Notes under the pieces: model-generated | Told to the model about the DNA's origin: nothing | The model's input: only the letters and a program-made list of their open reading frames with translations | Databases searched by the model: none | Made by a program: the position numbers and the translations under genes | From: Zoogloea sp. | Lineage (GTDB): Bacteria > Pseudomonadota > Gammaproteobacteria > Burkholderiales > Rhodocyclaceae | Reading direction: 5' to 3' | DNA length: 56,116 nt | Assembly: GCF_017302315.1 (NCBI RefSeq) | Contig: NZ_JAFLDT010000017.1 | Coordinates: forward strand, 1 to 56,116 | Part shown: piece by piece, positions 38,943 through 48,702 of the stretch | How the letters are laid out: each line of letters begins with the position of its first letter | Position numbering within the stretch: the stretch's first letter is position 1

Positions 38943-39424
38943 AGCTCCCCGCCCCCCGCGCCGTCCTGCCCCTGCTGTTGGCGATGCTCGCCGGTGCAGG
39001 GCCGGCAACGGCTCAAAACGCCTACCGCTGGGTGGACGAGCAGGGTCGCGTGCAATACAGCGACCAGCCGCCCCCCCAGGCCATCAAGAAGTTCGAGGAG
39101 CGCAACGTCCAGCCCAACCGGGGCAACGCCCAGACGCCCTTCCTGACCCGCAAGGCCGCTGCCAGCTTCCCGGTGACCTTGTACACCAGCAAGGATTGCG
39201 GCAAGCCCTGCGAGGACGCACGCGCGCTGCTCCAGAAGCGGGGCGTCCCCTTCAGCGAAACCGCCATCGACAGCACCGAGCAGGTCGAAGCCTTCAAGGC
39301 CCGCTTCAGCAAGGAGCCCTTCGTTCCCACCCTGGTGGTCGGCCGCACAGTGGAAGCCGGCCTCGCCGAACCCCTGTGGCATAGCCTGCTGGACAACGCC
39401 GGCTACCCGGCCGGCAAGCGCTGA
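38939..39424 (+). CDS. Exported DUF4124/glutaredoxin-like protein
   Basis: 161 residues. Signal peptide 1-25 (cleavage near ATAQ), DUF4124-like segment 27-60 (AYRWVDEQGRVQYSDQPPP), then a glutaredoxin fold about 78-155 with VTLYTSKDCGKPC and the cis-Pro segment FVPTLVVG. The redox centre is Cys87-x3-Cys91 rather than CxxC. Probably a periplasmic thiol-disulphide protein. Coupled to prlC by ATGA. It is the last core gene before the accessory island. Confidence 0.88.
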   Translation: MKLPAPRAVLPLLLAMLAGAGPATAQNAYRWVDEQGRVQYSDQPPPQAIKKFEERNVQPNRGNAQTPFLTRKAAASFPVTLYTSKDCGKPCEDARALLQKRGVPFSETAIDSTEQVEAFKARFSKEPFVPTLVVGRTVEAGLAEPLWHSLLDNAGYPAGKR

Positions 39425-39524
39425 GACGATCACATCGGGTCAAACCATCTGCAGAATATCTCGGAAGCCTTCGCTCGAGAACAAACTATTTGCTTCATGC
39501 CCTCACTCCGGCCCCGCTCTTGCG

Positions 39525-40052
39525 TCAGCCTCTCGACACCATCTTCGTCAGACTCCCGCAGCCGTAAACCACCTTGGTTGTTGCCGTGTCATCCTTAGGC
39601 CCGCGACTACAGGTACAGAGATGCTTCGCTTGGGTTTCCACGAACACGCCTTTCGCCCCCAACACCCGCATGATGTCCTCGGCGATGTCCCTCGTGAGGA
39701 TCTCCTGAATCTGTAGCCGTCGGCCATGCACGTCCCGAACAAGCCTGATGATCTTCCCGAGGCCTGTGATGATCTCCGCCGGCTCATAGGTAACGGACGC
39801 CGTCCCAAGAAACGGAGCGAAATGGTGCTCGCAGAACGAATAGAAGTTGATGTCTGCGACGGTGACCAGCCCAGTGTAATTGGACACATGGATAACATCG
39901 TTGAGGACATCCTCAGCGCGTAACCCGTAACCAGAAAACAGTTCCTTGAAGGACCTGCGTATCCGGTCTTCCGACACTGCCAGTTTCTGGCGTATATGCT
40001 CATCGGTAATAAATCCGAACAAGCCGTCCTCCTCTGTCGCACCCGTCTTCAT
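39525..40052 (-). CDS. folE: GTP cyclohydrolase I-like protein, short
   Basis: Would convert GTP to 7,8-dihydroneopterin triphosphate, the entry to folate, pterins and 7-deazaguanines. 175 residues against ~220 in E. coli: the N-terminal helices are trimmed. Zinc ligands are kept: Cys74 and His77 in FCEHHFAPF, Cys146 in KHLCTCSRG; GLGKIIRLVRD and RRLQIQEILT are conserved. Last gene of a minus-strand operon (4-bp overlap with the methyltransferase gene). Lower G+C than flanks, so likely acquired. With a queuosine-precursor transporter beside it, a deazaguanine or pterin role is plausible. Gene symbol is by homology only; probably not the housekeeping copy. Confidence 0.85.
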   Translation of the reverse strand: MKTGATEEDGLFGFITDEHIRQKLAVSEDRIRRSFKELFSGYGLRAEDVLNDVIHVSNYTGLVTVADINFYSFCEHHFAPFLGTASVTYEPAEIITGLGKIIRLVRDVHGRRLQIQEILTRDIAEDIMRVLGAKGVFVETQAKHLCTCSRGPKDDTATTKVVYGCGSLTKMVSRG

Positions 40053-40732
40053 CTTTGCCTCCTGAATAGCTTCACTCGCTCGTTGATGGCGAACGATGGT
40101 GTGTCTAATTGTCGCTCCAAGTACTTCACGAGCATCTGGTGCTTAGCTACTGGCAGTGCGCAGTCCATGAGAAAGCACACCTGCTCAGCCAAAGTGGGAA
40201 AATCCTTGCACTCCAGCCTTGCCGTAAAGCGGGTCTCCTCGCTAAGGACGTATCCCGCAGGGAACTCCGGAACATTCACTTCTGGATTGGCATCCTTTGA
40301 GTTGCTCGCGAACCACTCAACGAGTTCACCCATGAAGTAGTCGTTCGCGTTGTCAACGACTACCACGCACTCTGGATCAAGCTCCTTCACCTTCTCATTA
40401 AGTCTTGATATATCGTCGTCCAAGAACTGAAGAACGTGACATAGCAGCACCGTCCCGATGGCCTGGTCAGCCGGATCATAAGAAAAAAAGTCCGACTTCT
40501 CGCGGGAATGATTAACTGGAATCGGATGGTTCGAATAATCGAGAACATCCAGATGAATCACACGCTTTTCGGGAAACGCAGATGCCGAGATGTCGCCCAG
40601 ACCAGAGCCAACATCAAGGATGGGCTGGACTAGCGTCCTTGAGAAACGCTCACGCAAGATATCTGCAACCAGACAGTTCTCATTGCAGTGGACGCCCTTG
40701 AAGACGACCACCTCTTGCTTAGTGATTTTCAT
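40049..40732 (-). CDS. Class I SAM-dependent methyltransferase-like protein
   Basis: 227 residues. SAM-binding motif I PILDVGSGLGDISA at about 37-50, an acidic motif II near VIHLDVLDY (about 59-67) and a following VLLCHVLQFLDDD stretch agree with a Rossmann methyltransferase. Residues 130-227 do not match anything I recognise, so the substrate is unknown: nucleobase, pterin or a small molecule are all possible. Stop overlaps the GTP cyclohydrolase start; one base separates it from the transporter gene. Confidence 0.7.
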   Translation of the reverse strand: MKITKQEVVVFKGVHCNENCLVADILRERFSRTLVQPILDVGSGLGDISASAFPEKRVIHLDVLDYSNHPIPVNHSREKSDFFSYDPADQAIGTVLLCHVLQFLDDDISRLNEKVKELDPECVVVVDNANDYFMGELVEWFASNSKDANPEVNVPEFPAGYVLSEETRFTARLECKDFPTLAEQVCFLMDCALPVAKHQMLVKYLERQLDTPSFAINERVKLFRRQR

Positions 40733-40733
40733 G

Positions 40734-41456
40734 CTAAGAGCTCTTTACACCGCCTCCCTTGACCGGCTCGTCACCAATGTTGTTCCGAAGAACATGAAAC
40801 GGATTGAAGTCAGTGTCGGTATCGTAGTAGTCCTCGCCTTCTGCTTTTTTGAGAAAACGCACAACGACCATGGTAAAGGGAAGAGCCAGGACCTCCCAAC
40901 CAACCTTGAAGGCCCACCCGGACAGGGTAAGCGACACCAGTTCCGCCGTCGGAAAAATGCCAGCGAAGGCGATCAGCACGAACACTGACGTATCGATCGC
41001 CTGCCCTACCACCGTTGAGAGGACGAACCGCAGCGGCATGATCCGACCCTGCATACGCACCTTTATCTTGGCCAGGACGTATGAGTTGCAGAACTCACCC
41101 AGGAAATACGCGACAATCGATGCGAGCACTATGCGGGGCACCTTCCCGAGAATATGGTCATATGCCTGCTGGTCCGTCCAGAACGAGGCCGGCGGAAGTT
41201 GTCGCGCGATCTCGTAGGTAAGCACCATAAGGAGCAAGGAGAAGAAGCCAGACCAGATCACCTTGCGAGATGTGGCATAGCCATACACCTCCGTAAGAAT
41301 ATCGCCGAAGAGGTACGCGAGCGGAAACAGGATGATTCCGGCCGGCAACGCCAAGGAACCGAACGCAAAAATCTTCGTGTCGAGCGTGTTCGAGATTAGC
41401 AGCGTTGCTACGAATATCCCTGTGACAAAGGTAAGGTAACGGTATTCCTTTTTCAT
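40734..41456 (-). CDS. YhhQ/VUT-type queuosine precursor transporter
   Basis: Inner membrane protein of 240 residues with about six hydrophobic helices. The segment LPAGIILFPLAYLFGDILTE followed by VYGYATSRKVIWSGF is the hallmark of the YhhQ family, which imports preQ0/preQ1. Start overlaps the regulator stop by 4 bp. Together with a GTP cyclohydrolase I it points to 7-deazaguanine or related metabolism. The C-terminal 35 residues are acidic and hydrophilic, longer than usual. Confidence 0.88.
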   Translation of the reverse strand: MKKEYRYLTFVTGIFVATLLISNTLDTKIFAFGSLALPAGIILFPLAYLFGDILTEVYGYATSRKVIWSGFFSLLLMVLTYEIARQLPPASFWTDQQAYDHILGKVPRIVLASIVAYFLGEFCNSYVLAKIKVRMQGRIMPLRFVLSTVVGQAIDTSVFVLIAFAGIFPTAELVSLTLSGWAFKVGWEVLALPFTMVVVRFLKKAEGEDYYDTDTDFNPFHVLRNNIGDEPVKGGGVKSS

Positions 41457-42427
41457 GACGCGCTTACCTCACGCAGACGTTTCGTCCCTTGATGGTTTCC
41501 ATACCTCAGGACTTGAGCCTGTTCAGTAGTGATTAGTTCGCTCCCAATCGCTGTTTCGACAAAGCCCTCAAGGTAAGCGATGATCGGGAACAGTTCGTCC
41601 CTTTCTACGTGAAAGGCGTAGATCGGTTTTCCCTTCTGGCGGATGCACTGAAAGCCAACGGGTAACCCATCTGGGTCAAATGGGTTGCCTATTGCATAAT
41701 CCGCATTTAGCACCTTCAATTTCTCGTCTTCCACAGGAATCCCGAATACTTGGCCGACTTGCTTTCCGGCTTTCTTCTCGAGCCTTACTCTGAGGTTTGC
41801 AAAGGCGCTACCCGGCTTCAGCTCATGGGGTCTAACGAAGTACGTGTAGTTAACAGATTTCTTCAAGTTCTCCACAACGACGTCCTCCATCTCTTTGTCA
41901 TCGTTGTCCACGTAGTTCAAAGCGGCTATCCAGAAGACTTTGGCCTTTGGCAGTTCGCGTTCCCACGTGGCCAACCCCCGAACATCGAGCATCTGTTCAC
42001 ACGCCACAAGCCCAGCTTTTGCTTCGAGTTGAAGCTCCTCAAGTCTTTGAACGGTACTTGGGTCATCAATATCGCCAATATTGTCGAACCGTCTTAATGC
42101 TCCCTTGAACACATTCCAGCGGGCTTCATAGAGCACTCCCGTCGCGTCCGTTTCAGACTGCATTGGGAGGCGATACTTCTCTTTGCAAAGTTCGAGCACG
42201 AGCGCCATGTAGTCGACCTTGTAGAGTCGTGAGAGAGCAAGAAGAACCTTCGGATCGGGGTCCGCCACACCACCGTTCTCGTAGTTCGCCAACATGCTCT
42301 GCCCCAACCTGATGTCTCCGCCCGAGCTCAATTCTTCAGCAGCCAGCCGCTGGGACTTCCCTACATCTTTCCGAAGTTCGGCCAAGCATCTACCGAAGTT
42401 CTCGAACCGCCCCATGTCGACCACCAT
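41453..42427 (-). CDS. HTH (XRE-type) regulator with unknown C-terminal domain
   Basis: 324 residues. HTH domain about 10-78 (ELRKDVGKSQRLAAEEL, SMLANYENGG, LLALSRLYKVDY). Residues 90-160 are helical; 160-305 form a mixed alpha/beta domain (KVFWIAALNYVDND, NADYAIGNPFDPDGLPVGF, KPIYAFHVERDE) of no family known to me, possibly ligand-binding. First gene of operon A, and beside the divergent control region, so it likely regulates operon A and perhaps B. ATG 42427 and ATG 42415 are both possible starts; neither has a good ribosome site. Confidence 0.75.
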   Translation of the reverse strand: MVVDMGRFENFGRCLAELRKDVGKSQRLAAEELSSGGDIRLGQSMLANYENGGVADPDPKVLLALSRLYKVDYMALVLELCKEKYRLPMQSETDATGVLYEARWNVFKGALRRFDNIGDIDDPSTVQRLEELQLEAKAGLVACEQMLDVRGLATWERELPKAKVFWIAALNYVDNDDKEMEDVVVENLKKSVNYTYFVRPHELKPGSAFANLRVRLEKKAGKQVGQVFGIPVEDEKLKVLNADYAIGNPFDPDGLPVGFQCIRQKGKPIYAFHVERDELFPIIAYLEGFVETAIGSELITTEQAQVLRYGNHQGTKRLREVSAS

Positions 42428-42691
42428 GACTTAAAAGGATGTGATAACAAAACACTGCATGGCAAGTATAAGGCATCGCTCAGCAATCACCCAACACAAT
42501 CATTGCACACCATCTAATGATTTCTGAACCATTTATCGCGTGAAACGATCTGTTTTTGCAGTTGACTGATCATAATTTAATGATCTACGATCAACATAAA
42601 ATGATCTCCGGCAAGCGAACGCATCGGAACAGTCGCCTTGTCGTGAAGGGAAAGAGTGGCATATGTGCCATAACATCAAGGAGATAAGTCC
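42428..42691. promoter_or_regulatory. AT-rich divergent control region with repeated AATGAT(C/T)T boxes
   Basis: No gene here. The 60 bases 42541-42600 have only 18 G+C. AATGATTT at about 42516 and AATGATCT at 42579-42586 and 42600-42607 (21 bp apart, two helical turns) look like repeated operators. TTGACT (42562-42567), 18 bases, TACGAT (42586-42591) is a candidate promoter for operon B and overlaps one box. TGGCA-TATG-TGCCA (42657-42670) lies just before the operon B ribosome site AAGGAG (42678-42683). Confidence 0.5.
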
Positions 42692-43582
42692 ATGATCACC
42701 CCTGTCATGCGGATCAGCACATCGATCTACGCGAAGCTCGAGAACCTGCAACTGGGCGGCAGCCACAAGGCCCGGTCCGCACGCCAGATCATGATCGATG
42801 CGATCCGGGACGGGGACCTGACCCCGGGAATGACCGTGCTCGAGAGATCCGGGGGTAACCTGGGGATCGGTCTCGCCATCGAGGCTAACCGCAGGGGCTA
42901 CCCGCTGCACCTGGTGGTCAATCTGAATTTCAGCCAGCACAAGAGGAAAATCCTCAAAGCGCTCGGGGCGGAGTTGGTCGGACTCGAGTTTTTGCGCCGA
43001 GGTCTGACGACTCTCGACACGGTGCAGGAGGTTCTGGCGCGGCAGGAACGTCCATACTTCTTCCCCGACCAGTTTCGCAACCCCGCTAATCTCGCCGCGC
43101 ACGCCCTCCATACCGCTCCTGAGATTCTTAACTTCTTGGAATCGATTGCTTGCTCGTTCGATGACCAGATCGTTTTCGTCGGGGGTATTGGTACGGGCGC
43201 TTCGATCACGGCCATCGGCCGGGCGATGAAAGCCACCTTTCCGGCAACCGAGGTGGTCGCGGTCCAGCCAGAAAACGTCGACTTTCAGAACCACAGTTAC
43301 GGCCCCCATTCGATCCAGGGCACCGGTGTCGCCCGTCCGCCCCTATTCGACAGTTCGATCGTCGATCGCTACGTGCCATGCAGCCACGAACAAATGCTGA
43401 GTGCCCAGCAGTGGCTTATCCGCACACAGGGCCTGTTCGTCGGTTACTCGAGCGCGGCCAACGCTCATGTGGCGCGGATCCTGGAGGACGAGTGGACCGG
43501 CCGGCGCCAACGTCGAGGCAGGCGACTCGTGATCGTGACCTTGATTTACGACTGCGGCAGCTCATACATGGGTAGTAGTTAG
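42692..43582 (+). CDS. Cysteine-synthase-family PLP enzyme (operon B, gene 1)
   Basis: Fold type II PLP enzyme of 296 residues. IYAKLENLQLGGSHKARSA carries the Schiff-base lysine (Lys26); SGGNLGIGLAIEA (53-65) is the substrate loop; VFVGGIGTGASITAIGRAMK is the phosphate-binding glycine loop; YFFPDQFRNPANLAAH and HSIQGTGV also match CysK-type enzymes. Differences: it lacks about 20 N-terminal residues (no IGNTPLV), and the usual GSVKDR reads GSHKAR. So beta-replacement on an activated serine is expected, but the nucleophile is probably not sulphide as in CysK. AAGGAG eight bases before the ATG. Followed by alaX-like, SAT-like and GTPase genes. Confidence 0.85.
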   Translation: MITPVMRISTSIYAKLENLQLGGSHKARSARQIMIDAIRDGDLTPGMTVLERSGGNLGIGLAIEANRRGYPLHLVVNLNFSQHKRKILKALGAELVGLEFLRRGLTTLDTVQEVLARQERPYFFPDQFRNPANLAAHALHTAPEILNFLESIACSFDDQIVFVGGIGTGASITAIGRAMKATFPATEVVAVQPENVDFQNHSYGPHSIQGTGVARPPLFDSSIVDRYVPCSHEQMLSAQQWLIRTQGLFVGYSSAANAHVARILEDEWTGRRQRRGRRLVIVTLIYDCGSSYMGSS

Positions 43583-43642
43583 CATTCACCCCTTCCCGTT
43601 ACGAAAATCCTGGCCACCTACCACCACAAACGGAGATTCATG

Positions 43643-44422
43643 ATGGATTCGATCCAGCAGATCACTCGCGACCGCAAGACCGAAAAACTGTACATCCTGT
43701 CCCCGGACCTTAGGTGGGCGATTGCCACTGTGCGTGAGGTACGGCCCGACCGAGGAGTCAGGCTGGATCGCACCGTAGCCTACCCGGAAGGCGGCGGGCA
43801 GGAAGGCGACAGGGGCACAATTGAGACAACTTCCGGTCTCAGGCTGGCGTTCGATGACACGCAGCGCGGCCCCGGTCGCGTGCTGTTCATGGACGGCTTC
43901 AGCGGCGTCCATGTGGACGTCCCGATCTACCATCGCGTCACGCCCGAGGACGCGCATCACCTAGCGGTAGGCGACGAAGTCATCGTTTCGATCGATATGG
44001 ACAGGCGAGCCCAACTCTCCCTGAGCCACACCGCCGCACACATCCTGTACTTGGGCGTGAAGCAAGTGCGCCCGGAAGCGGTCAACTGGGTCATCGGCTG
44101 TCATATCAGGGAGGATCAGGCCCGGTTCGACCTTCGGGTCGACGAGCGCTTCATGCCGGACGATCTGGCCAGGATGGAGGAGTTCGCCACCGAGTTCATT
44201 TGCGCGGACCATACCATCAAAATCAGGGCGCATCCCGACGAACCCGAAGCCCTTTACTGGCTCTGCAACGACGAGGTCATCCCCTGTGGCGGCACCCACG
44301 TGTCAAGAACCGGCCTGGTGGGACGTATCCGCGTGCAACGTAAGAACATCGGCAAGGGCAAGGAGAGACTGATCGCCACGTTCGGGCCGTCGGATACCGA
44401 CCGGCTCGACAGAGGCGGCTGA
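43643..44422 (+). CDS. AlaX-type aminoacyl-tRNA editing protein (operon B, gene 2)
   Basis: Free-standing relative of the alanyl-tRNA synthetase editing domain, which hydrolyses mischarged Ser- or Gly-tRNAAla. 259 residues. RLDRTVAYPEGGGQEGDRGT is diagnostic; all four zinc ligands are present: SLSHTAAH (two His of HxxxH) and CGGTH (Cys and His). Start ATG 43643 has GGAG seven bases upstream, ATG 43640 only four. Within this operon it probably deacylates tRNA charged with the amino acid the neighbours make or with its serine-derived precursor; that is inference. Confidence 0.88.
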   Translation: MDSIQQITRDRKTEKLYILSPDLRWAIATVREVRPDRGVRLDRTVAYPEGGGQEGDRGTIETTSGLRLAFDDTQRGPGRVLFMDGFSGVHVDVPIYHRVTPEDAHHLAVGDEVIVSIDMDRRAQLSLSHTAAHILYLGVKQVRPEAVNWVIGCHIREDQARFDLRVDERFMPDDLARMEEFATEFICADHTIKIRAHPDEPEALYWLCNDEVIPCGGTHVSRTGLVGRIRVQRKNIGKGKERLIATFGPSDTDRLDRGG

Positions 44423-44486
44423 CGGCGGGCGGGTCTGCCACGCAATCCGTGGCCTCGCACTCACCCCCAAAACCGGAGAGTCGAAC

Positions 44487-45464
44487 ATGAGCAAGCTCGA
44501 AGACGACGACCTGAAGGGTCTCCACGACTACCTGCGCGACCGAACTGCGCCGTTCCGGCTGAGCCTGAGCGGACTCGGACTTGCCGATGCCGAGTTTGCA
44601 CCTTACTACAATACGGCTCTGCAACTGGCCATTGGCGATCTGGATGCCATGGTGTCCACCGACCCGGCGGCCCGACGTTCGCGCTCGTACGTGTTGGCCT
44701 CCTATAGCACCTACCGGGCCGTGGTCGATTACCGGATCGGCCACCAAATCCTTCGGTTCGGCCGCGCAACGAGGCATCCCGAGATCTTCGCCGCCGAGGC
44801 GCGTAGGATTTCGGAGGACGCAAAGGCTCGATCGGGCGTGGAGATCCATCCAGCGGCACGTATCGGAGAGCGGTTCAAGATCGATCACGGCGTAGGAACC
44901 GTGATCGGAGAAGATGTCCGGATCGGCGCGCGCTGCACGCTGATGCAAAGCGTCGTCCTCGGGGCCCGCGGCACCAGCGTAATGGACGGAAAGCGGAGAC
45001 ACCCGACGCTGGACGACGACGTTACGGTCTGCGCGTTCGCGATGATTCTCGGGCCGATCAGCATCGGCCGGGGCTGCTTTGTTGGCCCGCACGTGGTTCT
45101 GACCCAATCCCTAAAGGACTACGAGAGTGCCCGAGTCCAGAGTTCGACGATGATCCTATCCGGGGGAGGATCCCTTGCTTTTTATGGCATCGTGCCCCAC
45201 CCCCGGTTGCGGCGGCGGTGCAGGATCGATGGCGAGGATCTCCAGGGGTGGCGCCCGAGGATCGTCGATCCCCACGCGGAGAATTTCCCCGACCTCGTAT
45301 CATTCAACTATTCGGTCATGGGGGACCGGATTCTAATCTCGAATGCATACCGAATTCCGGGCCGCGCCGCTCGCAAGCCCGGCCTAATGCTCACGCACCC
45401 GGACGGCGCGGCCTGCCGCCTGATTGAGCATGTCGGGTTGACCCAATTCTATGAGCGCCTCTAA
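44487..45464 (+). CDS. Serine-acetyltransferase-like protein with extra C-terminal domain (operon B, gene 3)
   Basis: 325 residues. Helical N-terminal part 1-110, then a left-handed beta-helix of hexapeptide repeats about 117-215: GVEIHPAARIGERFKIDHGV, TVIGEDVRIGARC, RHPTLDDDVTV, ILGPISIGRG. The CysE catalytic pair is kept (Asp133-His134 and His172), so acyl transfer to serine or an analogue is likely. Residues about 228-325 (RLRRRCRIDGEDLQGW... to the end) form an added domain I cannot place. GGAG eight bases before ATG 44487. Stop lies 3 bp before the GTPase start. Confidence 0.85.
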   Translation: MSKLEDDDLKGLHDYLRDRTAPFRLSLSGLGLADAEFAPYYNTALQLAIGDLDAMVSTDPAARRSRSYVLASYSTYRAVVDYRIGHQILRFGRATRHPEIFAAEARRISEDAKARSGVEIHPAARIGERFKIDHGVGTVIGEDVRIGARCTLMQSVVLGARGTSVMDGKRRHPTLDDDVTVCAFAMILGPISIGRGCFVGPHVVLTQSLKDYESARVQSSTMILSGGGSLAFYGIVPHPRLRRRCRIDGEDLQGWRPRIVDPHAENFPDLVSFNYSVMGDRILISNAYRIPGRAARKPGLMLTHPDGAACRLIEHVGLTQFYERL

Positions 45465-45467
45465 AAC

Positions 45468-47060
45468 ATGAGTACACTATCTTCACCCAGGAACTTTGCA
45501 ATATTTGGGGCCGCCCATGCGGGCAAATCGAGTCTGGCAGGCTTTTGCACGCTCCGGACGGGCGGCCTTAATGGGACTTGGGAATCCTTCCTGCATCATC
45601 GCCGCGTCCAATTGGGGGCTCACTTCGACGTGAAGCAGAAGTTCGCCTACATCGTCGACCGCGGCCCTGACGAACAGATCCGACAGCACGATGGCATCGG
45701 GCAGTCGAGGCGCCTGCACCCCACGACCGCGCATCTGCGCATCGACGGCCGGGACGTGCCCATCAACATGATCGATACCCCCGGGGCGCAGCACGTGGAG
45801 CGCGAGACGTATTCGGGAATGTTCATGGGTGACATGGGCATCTTCGTCGCCGAGATCAACCGGCTGCTGGAAGACGGACTGGGCGGAAACAGGGAATTCC
45901 TCGCGCAACTGGTGACATGGATCGAGTTTAAGCGACGAGCGCGATTTCTCATCGTGCTAACTAAGTTCGACCAGTGCGGATATTCGCGCGACCGTTACGA
46001 CTCAGCCTTACACAAGATCGGGCAAATGCTCGAGCAATTGTTCCACGCGAGCCTTTGCTATGACGTCATTCCGACCGCCATCGACATGATCACCGAGTCC
46101 GACCAGAACGTCGTGACGCCCGCAATACAAATGCCTTGGTATAAGGGGCCGACGCTGCTCGAATGGATTCAGGATTCGATCCGCCGCCATGCCGTGCCAG
46201 CGTTCTCCGGGATGGGCAAACTCGCGTACGTCGAGGGCGAGTACCGGCGCAAGGCGCGGGAGGTCGGGGTTCCCATGCTGCTCCAGGGCAAGGTGCTAAA
46301 TGGCGGATTTTCCGTCGGAGACGTCGTGAAAATTGCGCCGGTCCGGCTCGGAGATGGATCGCACGGTACGGCGACTGCTCGGATACGAAGCCTGCGGCCG
46401 CAAGGGGGCGAAATAAGGGCCAATCTGGAAGCCAATGAACTGGGCGGCTTTGCTTTGACGTCGATCCGGGGTGGCGCCGACCTGCGGCTGTGCAAGAGCA
46501 CCTGCCTTTTCGGCGCTGCGGACAAGATCGCAGTGGGGCGCGCCATTGTCATGCGCCTCCAAGGCACCCACCGGCTGCCTTTTGTCGGCGAACTATTTAC
46601 CCTGATTTGGTTCGGCAAACTAATTAGCTGCCACTTAGTGGGCTGCACGGGCGCTGAGAAGGAACTCCATGTCTTTGAGGCAGCAGGAGCACCGGTTGCG
46701 CTAGCCTCGCCCTTCGACGCGCCTGCGCACAACGTCTTTTACTTGCGCAGGGGCTCACAAAACGACGCACCCAAGTTTATTCCGGCAACAGTTACGCAAA
46801 TCGGCGTGGTGTCCTCAATCTCGGTCACTATTCCGGATGCACTGTTGCGGGTTGGCACAAGACTTCAACGTCGAAAAATCCCGATAGAGCACATAGACGA
46901 CACAAGTCTGGAAGTCAGCTGCAAAGATTCAGCCATAAACACCGTCCGGCAAATCGAGCATGCACTGCTCCATGAGGCCAGTCTGGATGTGTCGGAAGCG
47001 GAGTTAAAAAAATGCGGGAGTTATATGGCAACGGTACACCCATCCCTTCAAGGCCCCTGA
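45468..47060 (+). CDS. EF1A-like translational-type GTPase (operon B, gene 4)
   Basis: 530 residues. G1 GAAHAGKS at 14-21; switch I region KFAYIVDRGPDEQIRQ resembles the EF1A KYAWVLDK..ERERG stretch; G3 DTPGA at 103-107; G4 TKFD at 165-168 with following QCGYSRDRYD as in EF1A/Hbs1; beta-barrel domain II from about 262 (VPMLLQGKVLNGGFSVGD), domain III to about 470. The EF-Tu/EF1A catalytic His (DxPGH) is Ala107 here, and the ERERGIT element is altered. Closer to EF1A/eRF3/CysN-type factors than to EF-Tu. No CysD partner nearby, so a sulphate-activating role is not supported. Translationally coupled to gene 3 (3-bp gap). Confidence 0.82.
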   Translation: MSTLSSPRNFAIFGAAHAGKSSLAGFCTLRTGGLNGTWESFLHHRRVQLGAHFDVKQKFAYIVDRGPDEQIRQHDGIGQSRRLHPTTAHLRIDGRDVPINMIDTPGAQHVERETYSGMFMGDMGIFVAEINRLLEDGLGGNREFLAQLVTWIEFKRRARFLIVLTKFDQCGYSRDRYDSALHKIGQMLEQLFHASLCYDVIPTAIDMITESDQNVVTPAIQMPWYKGPTLLEWIQDSIRRHAVPAFSGMGKLAYVEGEYRRKAREVGVPMLLQGKVLNGGFSVGDVVKIAPVRLGDGSHGTATARIRSLRPQGGEIRANLEANELGGFALTSIRGGADLRLCKSTCLFGAADKIAVGRAIVMRLQGTHRLPFVGELFTLIWFGKLISCHLVGCTGAEKELHVFEAAGAPVALASPFDAPAHNVFYLRRGSQNDAPKFIPATVTQIGVVSSISVTIPDALLRVGTRLQRRKIPIEHIDDTSLEVSCKDSAINTVRQIEHALLHEASLDVSEAELKKCGSYMATVHPSLQGP

Positions 47061-47099
47061 ACGCTCTCTCGAGTACGCGATCGATCAGTAATTCGCCCA

Positions 47100-47235
47100 G
47101 CGTACATGGTCGTGCGTGTTCGCGCGCATTGAATTTCAACCACCCGTGTGTGCTGAATTTTGACTACGATCAGGGTTTCTGACATAGCTCAAGAAAACGT
47201 TGATTCTTGTTTTGAGCAAGGCCATTCTATGAGCT
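47100..47235. mobile_element. Possible insertion-sequence end remnant
   Basis: Two related boxes, TTGAATTTCAACCAC (about 47129) and CTGAATTTTGACTAC (about 47153), are followed by an imperfect GCTCAAGAAAAC...GTTTTGAGC inverted repeat. Repeated GAATTTxxAC boxes are reminiscent of IS21-family ends, but no transposase gene is here. No protein gene is seen between 47061 and 47289. Confidence 0.25.
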
Positions 47236-47289
47236 ATCTATTTTGAACCACATAGCGGTATGCCATATCTGGAGTTGTCGCCTACACGC

Positions 47290-47815
47290 GTCTCCACTGA
47301 CAATCAAACCTGTGAGAACCCGGAACCAGTGCCGGACCATCGCGGCCCGCTACACGGTGGGCGAGTGGTGCTCCGATGATGGCGTCTCCGCCAAGGTGAC
47401 TGCGACCCAGTGGACGGGGCTGGAGGTGCTCCTCGCCAAAGTCCGGGAAGGTGACGTCTTTTGGTGGCGGCGATTGATAGGCTCGGGCTGAACACCCTTG
47501 ACGTGCCGAACACCGTCAAAGCCTTGAAAGCGACGGGTGCGTCCATGATCTCCGTGCGGGAGAGCGTTAGCCTGACCATCCCGCCGGGTAGGCGAATGCT
47601 CACCATGCCGGTCGCAGTAGCCGATCTGGCGTGAGAGAACACCGAAGCTCGCTACGTTCGAGCGGACCAGAGCCAAAGGCAAACGCCGGCGACGCTTGAC
47701 GATGCGGACGTGGTCGCACTGCGTGCCGAGAACAATGCCGGCATCACGGCAGCGGCCGAAAACGCCGGGATTTCGTTTGCGCGTGAAACGGGGCTGCTCG
47801 AAAGGACAACGGCAA
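47290..47815 (+). pseudogene. Decayed serine recombinase (resolvase/invertase family)
   Basis: Read over two frames: DDGVSAKVTATQ...GLEVLLAKVREGDV (to about 47458), a frameshift in CTTTTGG near 47458-47461, then LVAAIDRLGLNTLDVPNTVKALKATGAS, RRMLTMPVAVADL, a TGA at 47632-47634 where relatives have the LERENI helix, and ATLDDADVVALRAENNAGIT, the C-terminal HTH region. AAIDRLG.NTLDV is the classic small serine recombinase core. The catalytic-serine N-terminus (YARVS) is missing. Its place at the end of the accessory island suggests it is a relic of the element that brought part of the island. Confidence 0.8.
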
Positions 47816-47943
47816 ACCATAAACTCTGTGGCGATGTGGCTGGCACAATCATGCCAACCAAGCAGGGTTCTGTGTAACCCGGAGCCTAGCGAGTAGCACG
47901 ATTAACGACATCAACCCGCGCCACCACTGGATTTCAAGACCCC

Positions 47944-48702
47944 ATGAAGATCGCCACCTGGAACGTCAACTCCCTCAAGGTCCGCCTACCCCACGTGCTC
48001 GACTGGCTGGCGGCCCACCAGCCCGATGCCCTGTGCCTGCAGGAGCTCAAGTGCGAGAACAAGGCCTTTCCTCTGGCTGAAATCGAAGCCGCCGGCTATC
48101 AGGCCGTGTTCAACGGGCAGAAGACCTACAACGGCGTCGCCATCCTCAGCCGCAAGCCGCTGGAAGACGTCACCTGTGACATTCCCGGCTTTGCCGACGA
48201 GCAGAAGCGCATCATCGCCGGCACCCTCGACGGGGTGCGCATCGTGTGCGGCTACTTCCCCAACGGTCAGGCCGTGGGCTCCGACAAATTCGCCTACAAG
48301 ATGGCTTGGCTGGAAGCCCTCACCGCCTGGCTGAAGACCGAACTGCAGGCTACCCCGCAACTGGTGCTGGCCGGCGACTACAACGTTGCGCCGGAAGACC
48401 GGGATGCCCACCCGGACTGGAAGGACGAGATCCACGTGTCCGTGCCCGAACGGGCGGCCTTCCAGGCCCTCATCGACCTCGGGCTGAGCGACGCCTTCCG
48501 CCTCTTCGAGCAGGAGGAGCGCAGCTTCTCCTGGTGGGATTACCGGATGGGCGCCTTCCGTCGCAACTTCGGCCTGCGCATTGACCACCTGTTGCTGTCA
48601 CCTCCCCTGGTGGAAAGATGCGCGGCCTGCTACACCGACAAGGAACCGCGCAAGCTTGAGCGCCCCTCGGACCACACTCCCGTCGTTGTCGAACTCCGAT
48701 GA
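47944..48702 (+). CDS. xth: Exodeoxyribonuclease III
   Basis: AP endonuclease/3'-5' exonuclease of base excision repair. 252 residues. MKIATWNVNSLKVRLPHVL, LQELKCENKAFP (catalytic Glu), GDYNVAPEDRDAH and GLRIDHLLLS with SDHTPVV (catalytic Asp-His) are all intact. First core gene after the island. Overlaps the Crp/Fnr gene by 4 bp. Confidence 0.96.
   Translation: MKIATWNVNSLKVRLPHVLDWLAAHQPDALCLQELKCENKAFPLAEIEAAGYQAVFNGQKTYNGVAILSRKPLEDVTCDIPGFADEQKRIIAGTLDGVRIVCGYFPNGQAVGSDKFAYKMAWLEALTAWLKTELQATPQLVLAGDYNVAPEDRDAHPDWKDEIHVSVPERAAFQALIDLGLSDAFRLFEQEERSFSWWDYRMGAFRRNFGLRIDHLLLSPPLVERCAACYTDKEPRKLERPSDHTPVVVELR

What the first reader, a model, noticed from the sequence alone, without database searches (positions are those of the whole stretch)
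42692..47060. Four-gene operon: CysK-like PLP enzyme, AlaX editing protein, SAT-like acyltransferase, EF1A-like GTPase
Seen: four co-directional genes, each with a clear family motif set, the last two separated by 3 bp. Known: SAT plus cysteine-synthase-family pairs make beta-substituted alanines from serine; AlaX hydrolyses wrongly charged tRNA; EF1A-like proteins carry aminoacyl-tRNA. Inference: the operon makes a non-standard (or protected) beta-substituted alanine and handles it at the tRNA level, either as self-protection or to deliver the charged tRNA to a ribosomal or non-ribosomal process. I know of no described system with this set.
Basis: partly seen in the sequence, partly recalled or inferred. 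Interest (0 to 1): 0.88.

Follow-up and report, generated by a model that had tools for sequence, protein, structure and literature searches.

The report
Mobile amino-acid cassette with tRNA editor
A horizontally acquired gene island pairs two enzymes that probably make an unusual alanine-like amino acid with a tRNA-editing enzyme that probably keeps it out of proteins, and relatives of the same three genes travel together on unrelated bacterial plasmids; the fourth gene, a GTPase, remains unexplained.

Summary
The four genes are real and correctly placed (42692-47060). They lie in an 8.5-kb island (39425 to about 47937) missing at this site in three of six same-genus stretches fetched. Three of the four recur together: a Salmonella India plasmid, a Xenorhabdus TH1 plasmid and an X. 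griffiniae contig carry AlaX, CysK-type and SAT-type genes. Trees and shared residues place the window's CysK and SAT with theirs. Its AlaX is of another lineage (one clade rejected, p-AU 1.5e-36). So one specialised CysK-SAT pair seems to have acquired an aminoacyl-tRNA deacylase twice, which argues for a functional link.

Most likely SAT makes O-acetylserine, the altered CysK-type enzyme joins it to a non-sulfide nucleophile, and AlaX clears tRNA charged with the product, as FthB does for fluorothreonine. The product is unknown and nothing was tested biochemically. Cysteine/serine homeostasis is the main rival.

A second operon in the island (regulator, transporter, methyltransferase-like, FolE) may belong to the system.

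The parts
42692..43582 (+). CysK-type PLP enzyme (296 aa); PLP lysine kept (GGSHKARS), substrate loop SGGNL where canonical CysK has TSGNT
43640..44422 (+). AlaX-M-type aminoacyl-tRNA deacylase (260 aa) with GGGQ, HTAAH and CGGTH motifs
44487..45464 (+). SAT-type hexapeptide acyltransferase (325 aa) with an unmatched C-terminal extension of about 110 aa
45468..47060 (+). EF1A/CysN-related GTPase (530 aa); PGH His replaced by Ala (DTPGAQH), switch-I GIT lost, TKFD for NKxD; function unknown
42428..42691 (.). intergenic region between the two divergent operons; probable promoter region (inferred)
41453..42427 (-). XRE-type HTH regulator (324 aa), first gene of the divergent operon
40734..41456 (-). 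Vut_1 / queuosine-precursor-transporter family membrane protein
40049..40732 (-). class I methyltransferase-like protein (weak matches, below cut-offs)
39525..40052 (-). FolE-family GTP cyclohydrolase I (PF01227 over cut-off)
47300..47880 (+). broken serine-recombinase-like remnant (resemblance recalled, in pieces in more than one frame) at the right end of the island
39425..47937 (.). horizontally acquired island; the two flanks lie about 60-70 bp apart in three relatives

Best explanation
The operon is a mobile cassette that makes a non-standard beta-substituted alanine and protects translation from it. Inferred steps: (1) the SAT-type protein acetylates serine to O-acetylserine; (2) the CysK-type enzyme eliminates acetate and adds a nucleophile other than sulfide; (3) the product resembles Ala or Ser enough to be charged by an aminoacyl-tRNA synthetase, probably AlaRS; (4) the AlaX protein hydrolyses the mischarged tRNA in trans. 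Shown: the genes, their families, their catalytic motifs, the island, and association of this CysK-SAT lineage with AlaX proteins of two different lineages. Not shown: any reaction or product. The GTPase is an EF1A/CysN-derived accessory whose G motifs argue against a normal translational GTPase cycle; a regulatory or self-protection role is a guess. The divergent operon may supply a regulator, transporter and tailoring enzyme, as methyltransferase and AzlC genes may do on the Salmonella plasmid.
For: AlaX/CysK/SAT together on a Salmonella India plasmid (adjacent), a Xenorhabdus TH1 plasmid and an X. griffiniae contig. CysK tree: window with these three, 99/99* in 17 rows, 100/100* on 292 well-filled columns, 18 rows. 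SAT tree: 97/97* in 13 rows, 99/97* on 174 columns. Residues exclusive to window plus these loci: SAT 8 (nine controls: 0-2), CysK 5 (13 controls: 0-3). The CysK ones include Gly in the substrate loop where the others have Ser or Ala, and Ser where the 13 others have Arg near the C-terminus. AlaX: a clade of window and Salmonella/Xenorhabdus AlaX is rejected, p-AU 1.5e-36. Own genome has two other CysK-type and two other SAT genes, so the island copies are probably not housekeeping. Exporter-type genes adjoin both plasmid CysK-SAT pairs and an extra ValRS lies near the Xenorhabdus one. Precedents: FthB in fluorothreonine clusters (passages); a beta-substituted alanine charged by human AlaRS and escaping its editing (passages).
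Against: No product, reaction or expression known. Window CysK, AlaX and SAT share only 30, 30 and 43% identity with the Salmonella ones, and the window CysK and SAT branches are long (3.1 and 4.8 changes per column). Grouping window CysK with the Novosphingobium enzyme was not firmly rejected (p-AU 0.057). In Xenorhabdus AlaX is not next to CysK-SAT: about 7.4 kb away on the TH1 plasmid and 2.8 kb in X. griffiniae. AlaX also sits near a CysK-type gene in 9 of 18 AlaX loci, with an SseA-like gene in 6, where cysteine metabolism is the simpler reading; the other 9 have no CysK nearby, and none of the 18 has SAT. The nearest relatives of the window AlaX have no CysK or SAT nearby. No obvious exporter in the four-gene operon.
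Confidence: 0.5

Rival explanations
1. Cysteine/serine homeostasis cassette: SAT and CysK supply extra cysteine (or use O-acetylserine), and AlaX clears Ser- or Gly-tRNA(Ala) formed when serine pools rise. No unusual product.
For: A CysK-type gene near AlaX in 9 of 18 fetched free-standing AlaX loci, with an SseA-like gene in 6; Sinorhizobium locus with CysK, AlaX, SseA and a nearby alanine dehydrogenase. AlaX is known for Ser-/Gly-tRNA(Ala) (passage).
Against: The window CysK and SAT group apart from the own-genome and alphaproteobacterial enzymes compared, with changed substrate-loop residues; two other CysK-type and two other SAT genes exist; plasmid cassettes carry exporter-type genes and an extra ValRS.
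Confidence: 0.27
2. One reading: the EF1A-like GTPase carries a specially charged tRNA to the ribosome or to a non-ribosomal ligase.
For: Remote homology to EF1A (51 bits; E 7e-8) and linkage to an AlaX gene.
Against: PGH His replaced by Ala and GIT switch motif lost; no Pfam match to EF-Tu domains 2 or 3 at E 0.1; no tRNA gene in the island and no synthetase or tRNA-dependent ligase family among its eight proteins.
Confidence: 0.05
3. Partly chance assembly: a CysK-SAT-AlaX module with an unrelated GTPase gene, brought together at an integration hotspot.
For: The site is variable among relatives and carries a recombinase-like remnant; the GTPase is in none of the stretches held of the three other loci.
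Against: SAT and GTPase are 3 bp apart and co-directional, typical of a coupled operon.
Confidence: 0.15

Closest known systems
AlaX, CysK and SAT genes of Salmonella India plasmid NZ_CP022016.1 and Xenorhabdus (NZ_CP147736.1; X. griffiniae NZ_LDNM01000085.1); annotated or sequenced, no description found in my paper searches
   Same: Same three enzyme families; CysK and SAT group with the window's; plasmid or transposase-rich context
   Different: AlaX of another lineage; no GTPase in the stretches held; instead methyltransferase + AzlC (Salmonella), or DMT transporter, SDH_alpha protein, ValRS, BrnQ, decarboxylase (Xenorhabdus)
FthB / fluorothreonine gene cluster of Streptomyces cattleya (passages in PMC11295145 and PMC7408626)
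   Same: Biosynthesis genes for an unusual amino acid beside an aminoacyl-tRNA deacylase that prevents its misincorporation
   Different: FthB is related to ProXp-ST1, not AlaX; different pathway; product known
CysE-CysK cysteine synthase pathway
   Same: SAT + PLP beta-replacement chemistry
   Different: Altered substrate loop; scores far below CysK and CysE cut-offs; SAT ends FYERL rather than in the Ile that docks into CysK (recalled)
Alphaproteobacterial CysK (PRK10717)-AlaX-SseA gene row
   Same: AlaX directly downstream of a CysK-type gene
   Different: Different CysK and AlaX lineages, no SAT nearby, followed by SseA
SbnA / DcsD-type enzymes (diaminopropionate, O-ureidoserine)
   Same: CysK homologues using non-sulfide nucleophiles (recalled); SbnA model scores 148.7 bits against a cut-off of 350; SGNLG-like motif (recalled)
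   Different: Below the SbnA cut-off; none of the island's genes looks like their partner genes (partners recalled)

Membership tests
CysK cysteine synthase | PLP lysine in SxK motif | tested here: met
   GGSHKARS aligns with GGSVKDR; role recalled
CysK cysteine synthase | canonical TSGNT substrate loop | tested here: not met
   window SGGNL; Salmonella/Xenorhabdus TGGNT; the 12 other rows TSGNT, TAGNT or SSGST; role recalled
CysK cysteine synthase | score over curated cut-off (TIGR01136 344 bits, TIGR01139 351) | tested here: not met
   185.7 and 172.4 bits
Serine acetyltransferase (CysE/EpsC) | hexapeptide fold with DHG and RHP motifs | tested here: met
   IDHG and RRHP present in alignment; roles of these residues recalled
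Serine acetyltransferase (CysE/EpsC) | score over curated cut-off (210.65 / 150 bits) | tested here: not met
   117.6 and 116.3 bits
AlaX-M trans-editing protein | GGGQ, HxxxH and CxxxH (zinc) motifs | tested here: met
   YPEGGGQ, HTAAH, CGGTH; roles recalled
AlaX-M trans-editing protein | equivalog cut-off NF040865 (300 bits) | tested here: not met
   104 bits; tRNA_SAD is over its own cut-off
AlaX-M trans-editing protein | hydrolysis of mischarged tRNA(Ala) | not testable with these tools
   needs assay
EF1A/EF-Tu aminoacyl-tRNA carrier | PGH catalytic His and GIT switch I | tested here: not met
   DTPGAQH and GIGQS; the 11 CysN-like rows printed have PGH, as do the three EF1A chains aligned; roles recalled
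EF1A/EF-Tu aminoacyl-tRNA carrier | domain 2 and 3 Pfam matches | tested here: not met
   only GTP_EFTU found at E 0.1
EF1A/EF-Tu aminoacyl-tRNA carrier | predicted fold | tested here: inconclusive
   single-sequence model, mean pLDDT 34.3
CysN (ATP sulfurylase GTPase subunit) | CysD partner beside it | tested here: not met
   no such family among the eight island proteins
Self-protected amino-acid antimetabolite cluster (FthB type) | unusual amino acid produced | not testable with these tools
   needs metabolite analysis
Self-protected amino-acid antimetabolite cluster (FthB type) | deacylase gene linked to amino-acid biosynthesis genes | tested here: met
   AlaX between CysK-type and SAT-type genes; adjacent on the Salmonella plasmid, within about 8 kb in two Xenorhabdus loci

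The most novel reading that the evidence does not exclude
A family of mobile cassettes makes an unknown beta-substituted alanine antimetabolite with translation-level immunity. AlaX deacylases were recruited separately to one CysK-SAT lineage, and this member adds a derived EF1A-like pseudo-GTPase as a new kind of translational self-protection.
Probability: 0.25. Interest if true: 0.85.

Novelty: new variant of a known kind. Interest (0 to 1): 0.6.

Why it matters
If right, the CysK-SAT-AlaX trio is a searchable signature for a class of small amino-acid antimetabolites that carry their own misincorporation control, the AlaX counterpart of FthB. It would give AlaX a secondary-metabolism role and could lead to new compounds that attack translation through AlaRS or related synthetases. 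The changed substrate loop makes the product question testable with a few genes in a laboratory strain.

Tried and rejected
GTPase homologues: sought in genome contigs (16 stretches matched a pattern, none confirmed), plasmids (ten haloarchaeal records annotated as EF1A, 23-25% identity), phages (none), viral contigs (none), 297 family, 398 phylum and 349 order genomes (apart from the window only weak matches of at most 34 bits, none at E 1e-8). The genome sets overlap and cover the window's own phylum only; other phyla were reached only.

Structure of the GTPase: one single-sequence model, mean pLDDT 34.3, no use; no fold search was made.

Riboswitch clue: no Rfam match up to E 1 in 39300-48000. 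Defence system: no PADLOC match for eight island proteins. Promoter-like (2, expected 1.8) and terminator-like (5, expected 3.6) sites are near the shuffled expectation.

Second ThrRS in the genome as self-resistance: not taken as a link. It sits beside a gene that looks like a COG0523-type protein (recalled), which suggests a zinc-limitation copy.

Left-operon homologues: no methyltransferase match in plasmids, viral contigs or 166 class genomes apart from its own; no regulator match in plasmids; none of the four in the trio loci.

More trio loci: sought by DNA in E. coli genomes (none) and plasmids (two records), by AlaX in 217 genomes of the X. griffiniae family (four matches including X. 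griffiniae; the other three have no SAT nearby), and by SAT and CysK alignments in viral contigs (none). The genome-contig scan with AlaX used only two patterns and gave four loci, three of them AlaRS.

Rows dropped or scored by hand: of 32 match rows, the window and 13 rows with open frames of 876 aa or more (read as AlaRS) were set aside, leaving 18 AlaX loci. L083-L085 proved to be AlaRS (876-886 aa) and were dropped from the 27-row label count, though they were in the tree and the clade test. L081 and L082 were scored as CysK- and SAT-adjacent although AlaX is 7.4 and 2.8 kb away; L113 was scored as not adjacent although a CysK-type gene lies 2.2 kb away. The CysK and SAT trees use a hand-picked subset of rows (13-18).

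Literature: PMC searches with AlaX or alanyl-tRNA editing terms plus cysteine synthase, SAT, gene cluster, self-resistance or antimetabolite terms found no description of such a cassette (listings only); many subscription papers are not in that library.
Full report
What is there. Four co-directional ORFs lie at the stated places: a CysK-type PLP enzyme (296 aa), an AlaX-M-type deacylase (260 aa), a SAT-type hexapeptide acyltransferase (325 aa) and an EF1A/CysN-related GTPase (530 aa), with gaps of 57, 64 and 3 bp. Each is a clear but divergent family member, below the curated cut-offs of the named NCBIfam models. The genome holds two other CysK-type genes and two other SAT genes at E 1e-5, so these are extra copies.

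The island. Close relatives match the window on both flanks (96% in the nearest). Of six same-genus stretches fetched, three (L102, L105, L106) join the two flanks with about 60-70 bp between them. L103 has about 0.7 kb of other sequence, L107 (a short stretch) matched the right flank and part of the recombinase-like remnant, and L104 matched only the right flank. The window therefore carries an insertion from 39425 to about 47937, G+C 0.569 against 0.66, with a broken recombinase-like remnant at its right end. It holds a second, divergent and tightly packed operon: XRE regulator, Vut_1 transporter, methyltransferase-like protein and FolE.

Same trio elsewhere. A Salmonella India plasmid has AlaX divergent from CysK-SAT-methyltransferase-AzlC, all adjacent. 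A Xenorhabdus TH1 plasmid has DMT transporter, SAT and CysK in a row, with an SDH_alpha protein, a second ValRS and AlaX further along, AlaX about 7.4 kb from CysK. An X. griffiniae contig has the same set with AlaX 2.8 kb from CysK and only a fragment of the ValRS matched. Between Salmonella and Xenorhabdus TH1 the proteins share about 56 (AlaX), 67 (CysK) and 60% (SAT) identity; window against Salmonella it is 30, 30 and 43%. Neither the GTPase nor the left-operon proteins match in these three loci at E 1e-3.

One CysK-SAT lineage, different AlaX lineages. The window CysK groups with the three trio CysKs at 99/99* among 17 rows and the SAT at 97/97* among 13. This holds on well-filled columns and with two models. 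Exclusive shared residues number 8 in SAT (nine controls 0-2) and 5 in CysK (13 controls 0-3). The window branches are long, the rows were hand-picked, and pairing the window CysK with the Novosphingobium enzyme was not firmly rejected (p-AU 0.057); pairing it with an own-genome CysK was (0.0015), and the window SAT with an own-genome SAT too (0.005). The AlaX tells a different story: the window AlaX groups with G342, Comamonas and Cetobacterium AlaX (100/98*), none of which has CysK or SAT in the stretch held, and a clade with the Salmonella/Xenorhabdus AlaX is rejected (p-AU 1.5e-36). On 27 AlaX rows, CysK linkage (13 rows) needs three changes and SAT linkage (4 rows) two. Separate recruitment of different AlaX proteins argues for function rather than shared descent of a gene block.

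Wider AlaX-CysK link. Among 349 phylum genomes, 31 (the window's own included) had a match at E 1e-10. Of 18 free-standing AlaX loci, 9 have a CysK-type gene beside or near them and none has SAT or the GTPase at E 1e-4 within roughly 6-8 kb. Six of the 9 share a further gene that looks like SseA; the Sinorhizobium record shows CysK, AlaX, SseA so annotated. The one example tested is a PRK10717-type CysK, so a cysteine-metabolism reading is natural there and is the main rival for the window too.

Chemistry. The PLP lysine is kept, but the substrate loop reads SGGNL instead of TSGNT. The Asp after the lysine is lost (KAR; KSR in the trio loci; KDR in the other 12 rows), and the Arg of the C-terminal xRY is Ser (SSY, RSY). 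These changes suggest another nucleophile (inference). SAT and AlaX keep their motifs. A beta-substituted alanine, BMAA, is reported to be charged by human AlaRS and to escape its editing (passages of PMC7904546), and FthB shows that an amino-acid producer can carry its own deacylase (passages of PMC11295145 and PMC7408626). I do not claim that this cassette makes BMAA; the product is unknown.

The GTPase. Its best PDB relatives are EF1A chains (E 7e-8) and its weak genome matches look like CysN. No close homologue was found. The PGH His is Ala, the GIT switch motif is gone and NKxD reads TKFD; the roles of these residues are recalled. This makes a normal translational cycle unlikely. The single-sequence model is useless (pLDDT 34.3). 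Its part in the system is unexplained.

Verdict. Observation confirmed; interpretation partly supported. The best reading is a self-protected beta-substituted-alanine cassette (0.5), with cysteine/serine homeostasis as main rival (0.27).

Noticed in passing
39525-42427: Divergent operon XRE - Vut_1 - methyltransferase-like - FolE, genes overlapping by 4 bp or 1 bp apart, G+C 0.51-0.55; no homologue of the methyltransferase or regulator in the collections searched for each.
   Followed up: partly
47300-47880: Broken serine-recombinase-like remnant at the right end of the island; part of it also matches relative L107.
   Followed up: partly
44487-45464 (C-terminal 110 aa): SAT C-terminal extension with no family match; absent from the Salmonella and Xenorhabdus SATs.
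   Followed up: no
L081 34-9059 and 34756-37745: Xenorhabdus TH1 plasmid: second ValRS, SDH_alpha protein, BrnQ and PLP decarboxylase around the trio; same set in X. griffiniae L082, where only a ValRS fragment is matched.
   Followed up: partly
L031 1-2034: Near the Salmonella trio: ThiF-rhodanese protein, a small protein without Pfam match and an adenylosuccinate-lyase-family gene.
   Followed up: no
L071-L073, L075-L080, L132: CysK-type gene beside AlaX, often with an SseA-like gene, in several families of the phylum; not searched for in the literature by name.
   Followed up: partly
L088 (G000:C107): Second ThrRS gene beside a probable COG0523 protein (recalled) in the window's genome.
   Followed up: no
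L029 9986-10741: Comamonas endophytica AlaX similarity (39.8%) runs past the annotated 164-aa gene through one in-frame stop, so the gene looks interrupted.
   Followed up: no
L063, L030: Two of the three nearest relatives of the window AlaX stand divergent from a MocR-like (GntR-aminotransferase or aminotransferase-family) gene.
   Followed up: no
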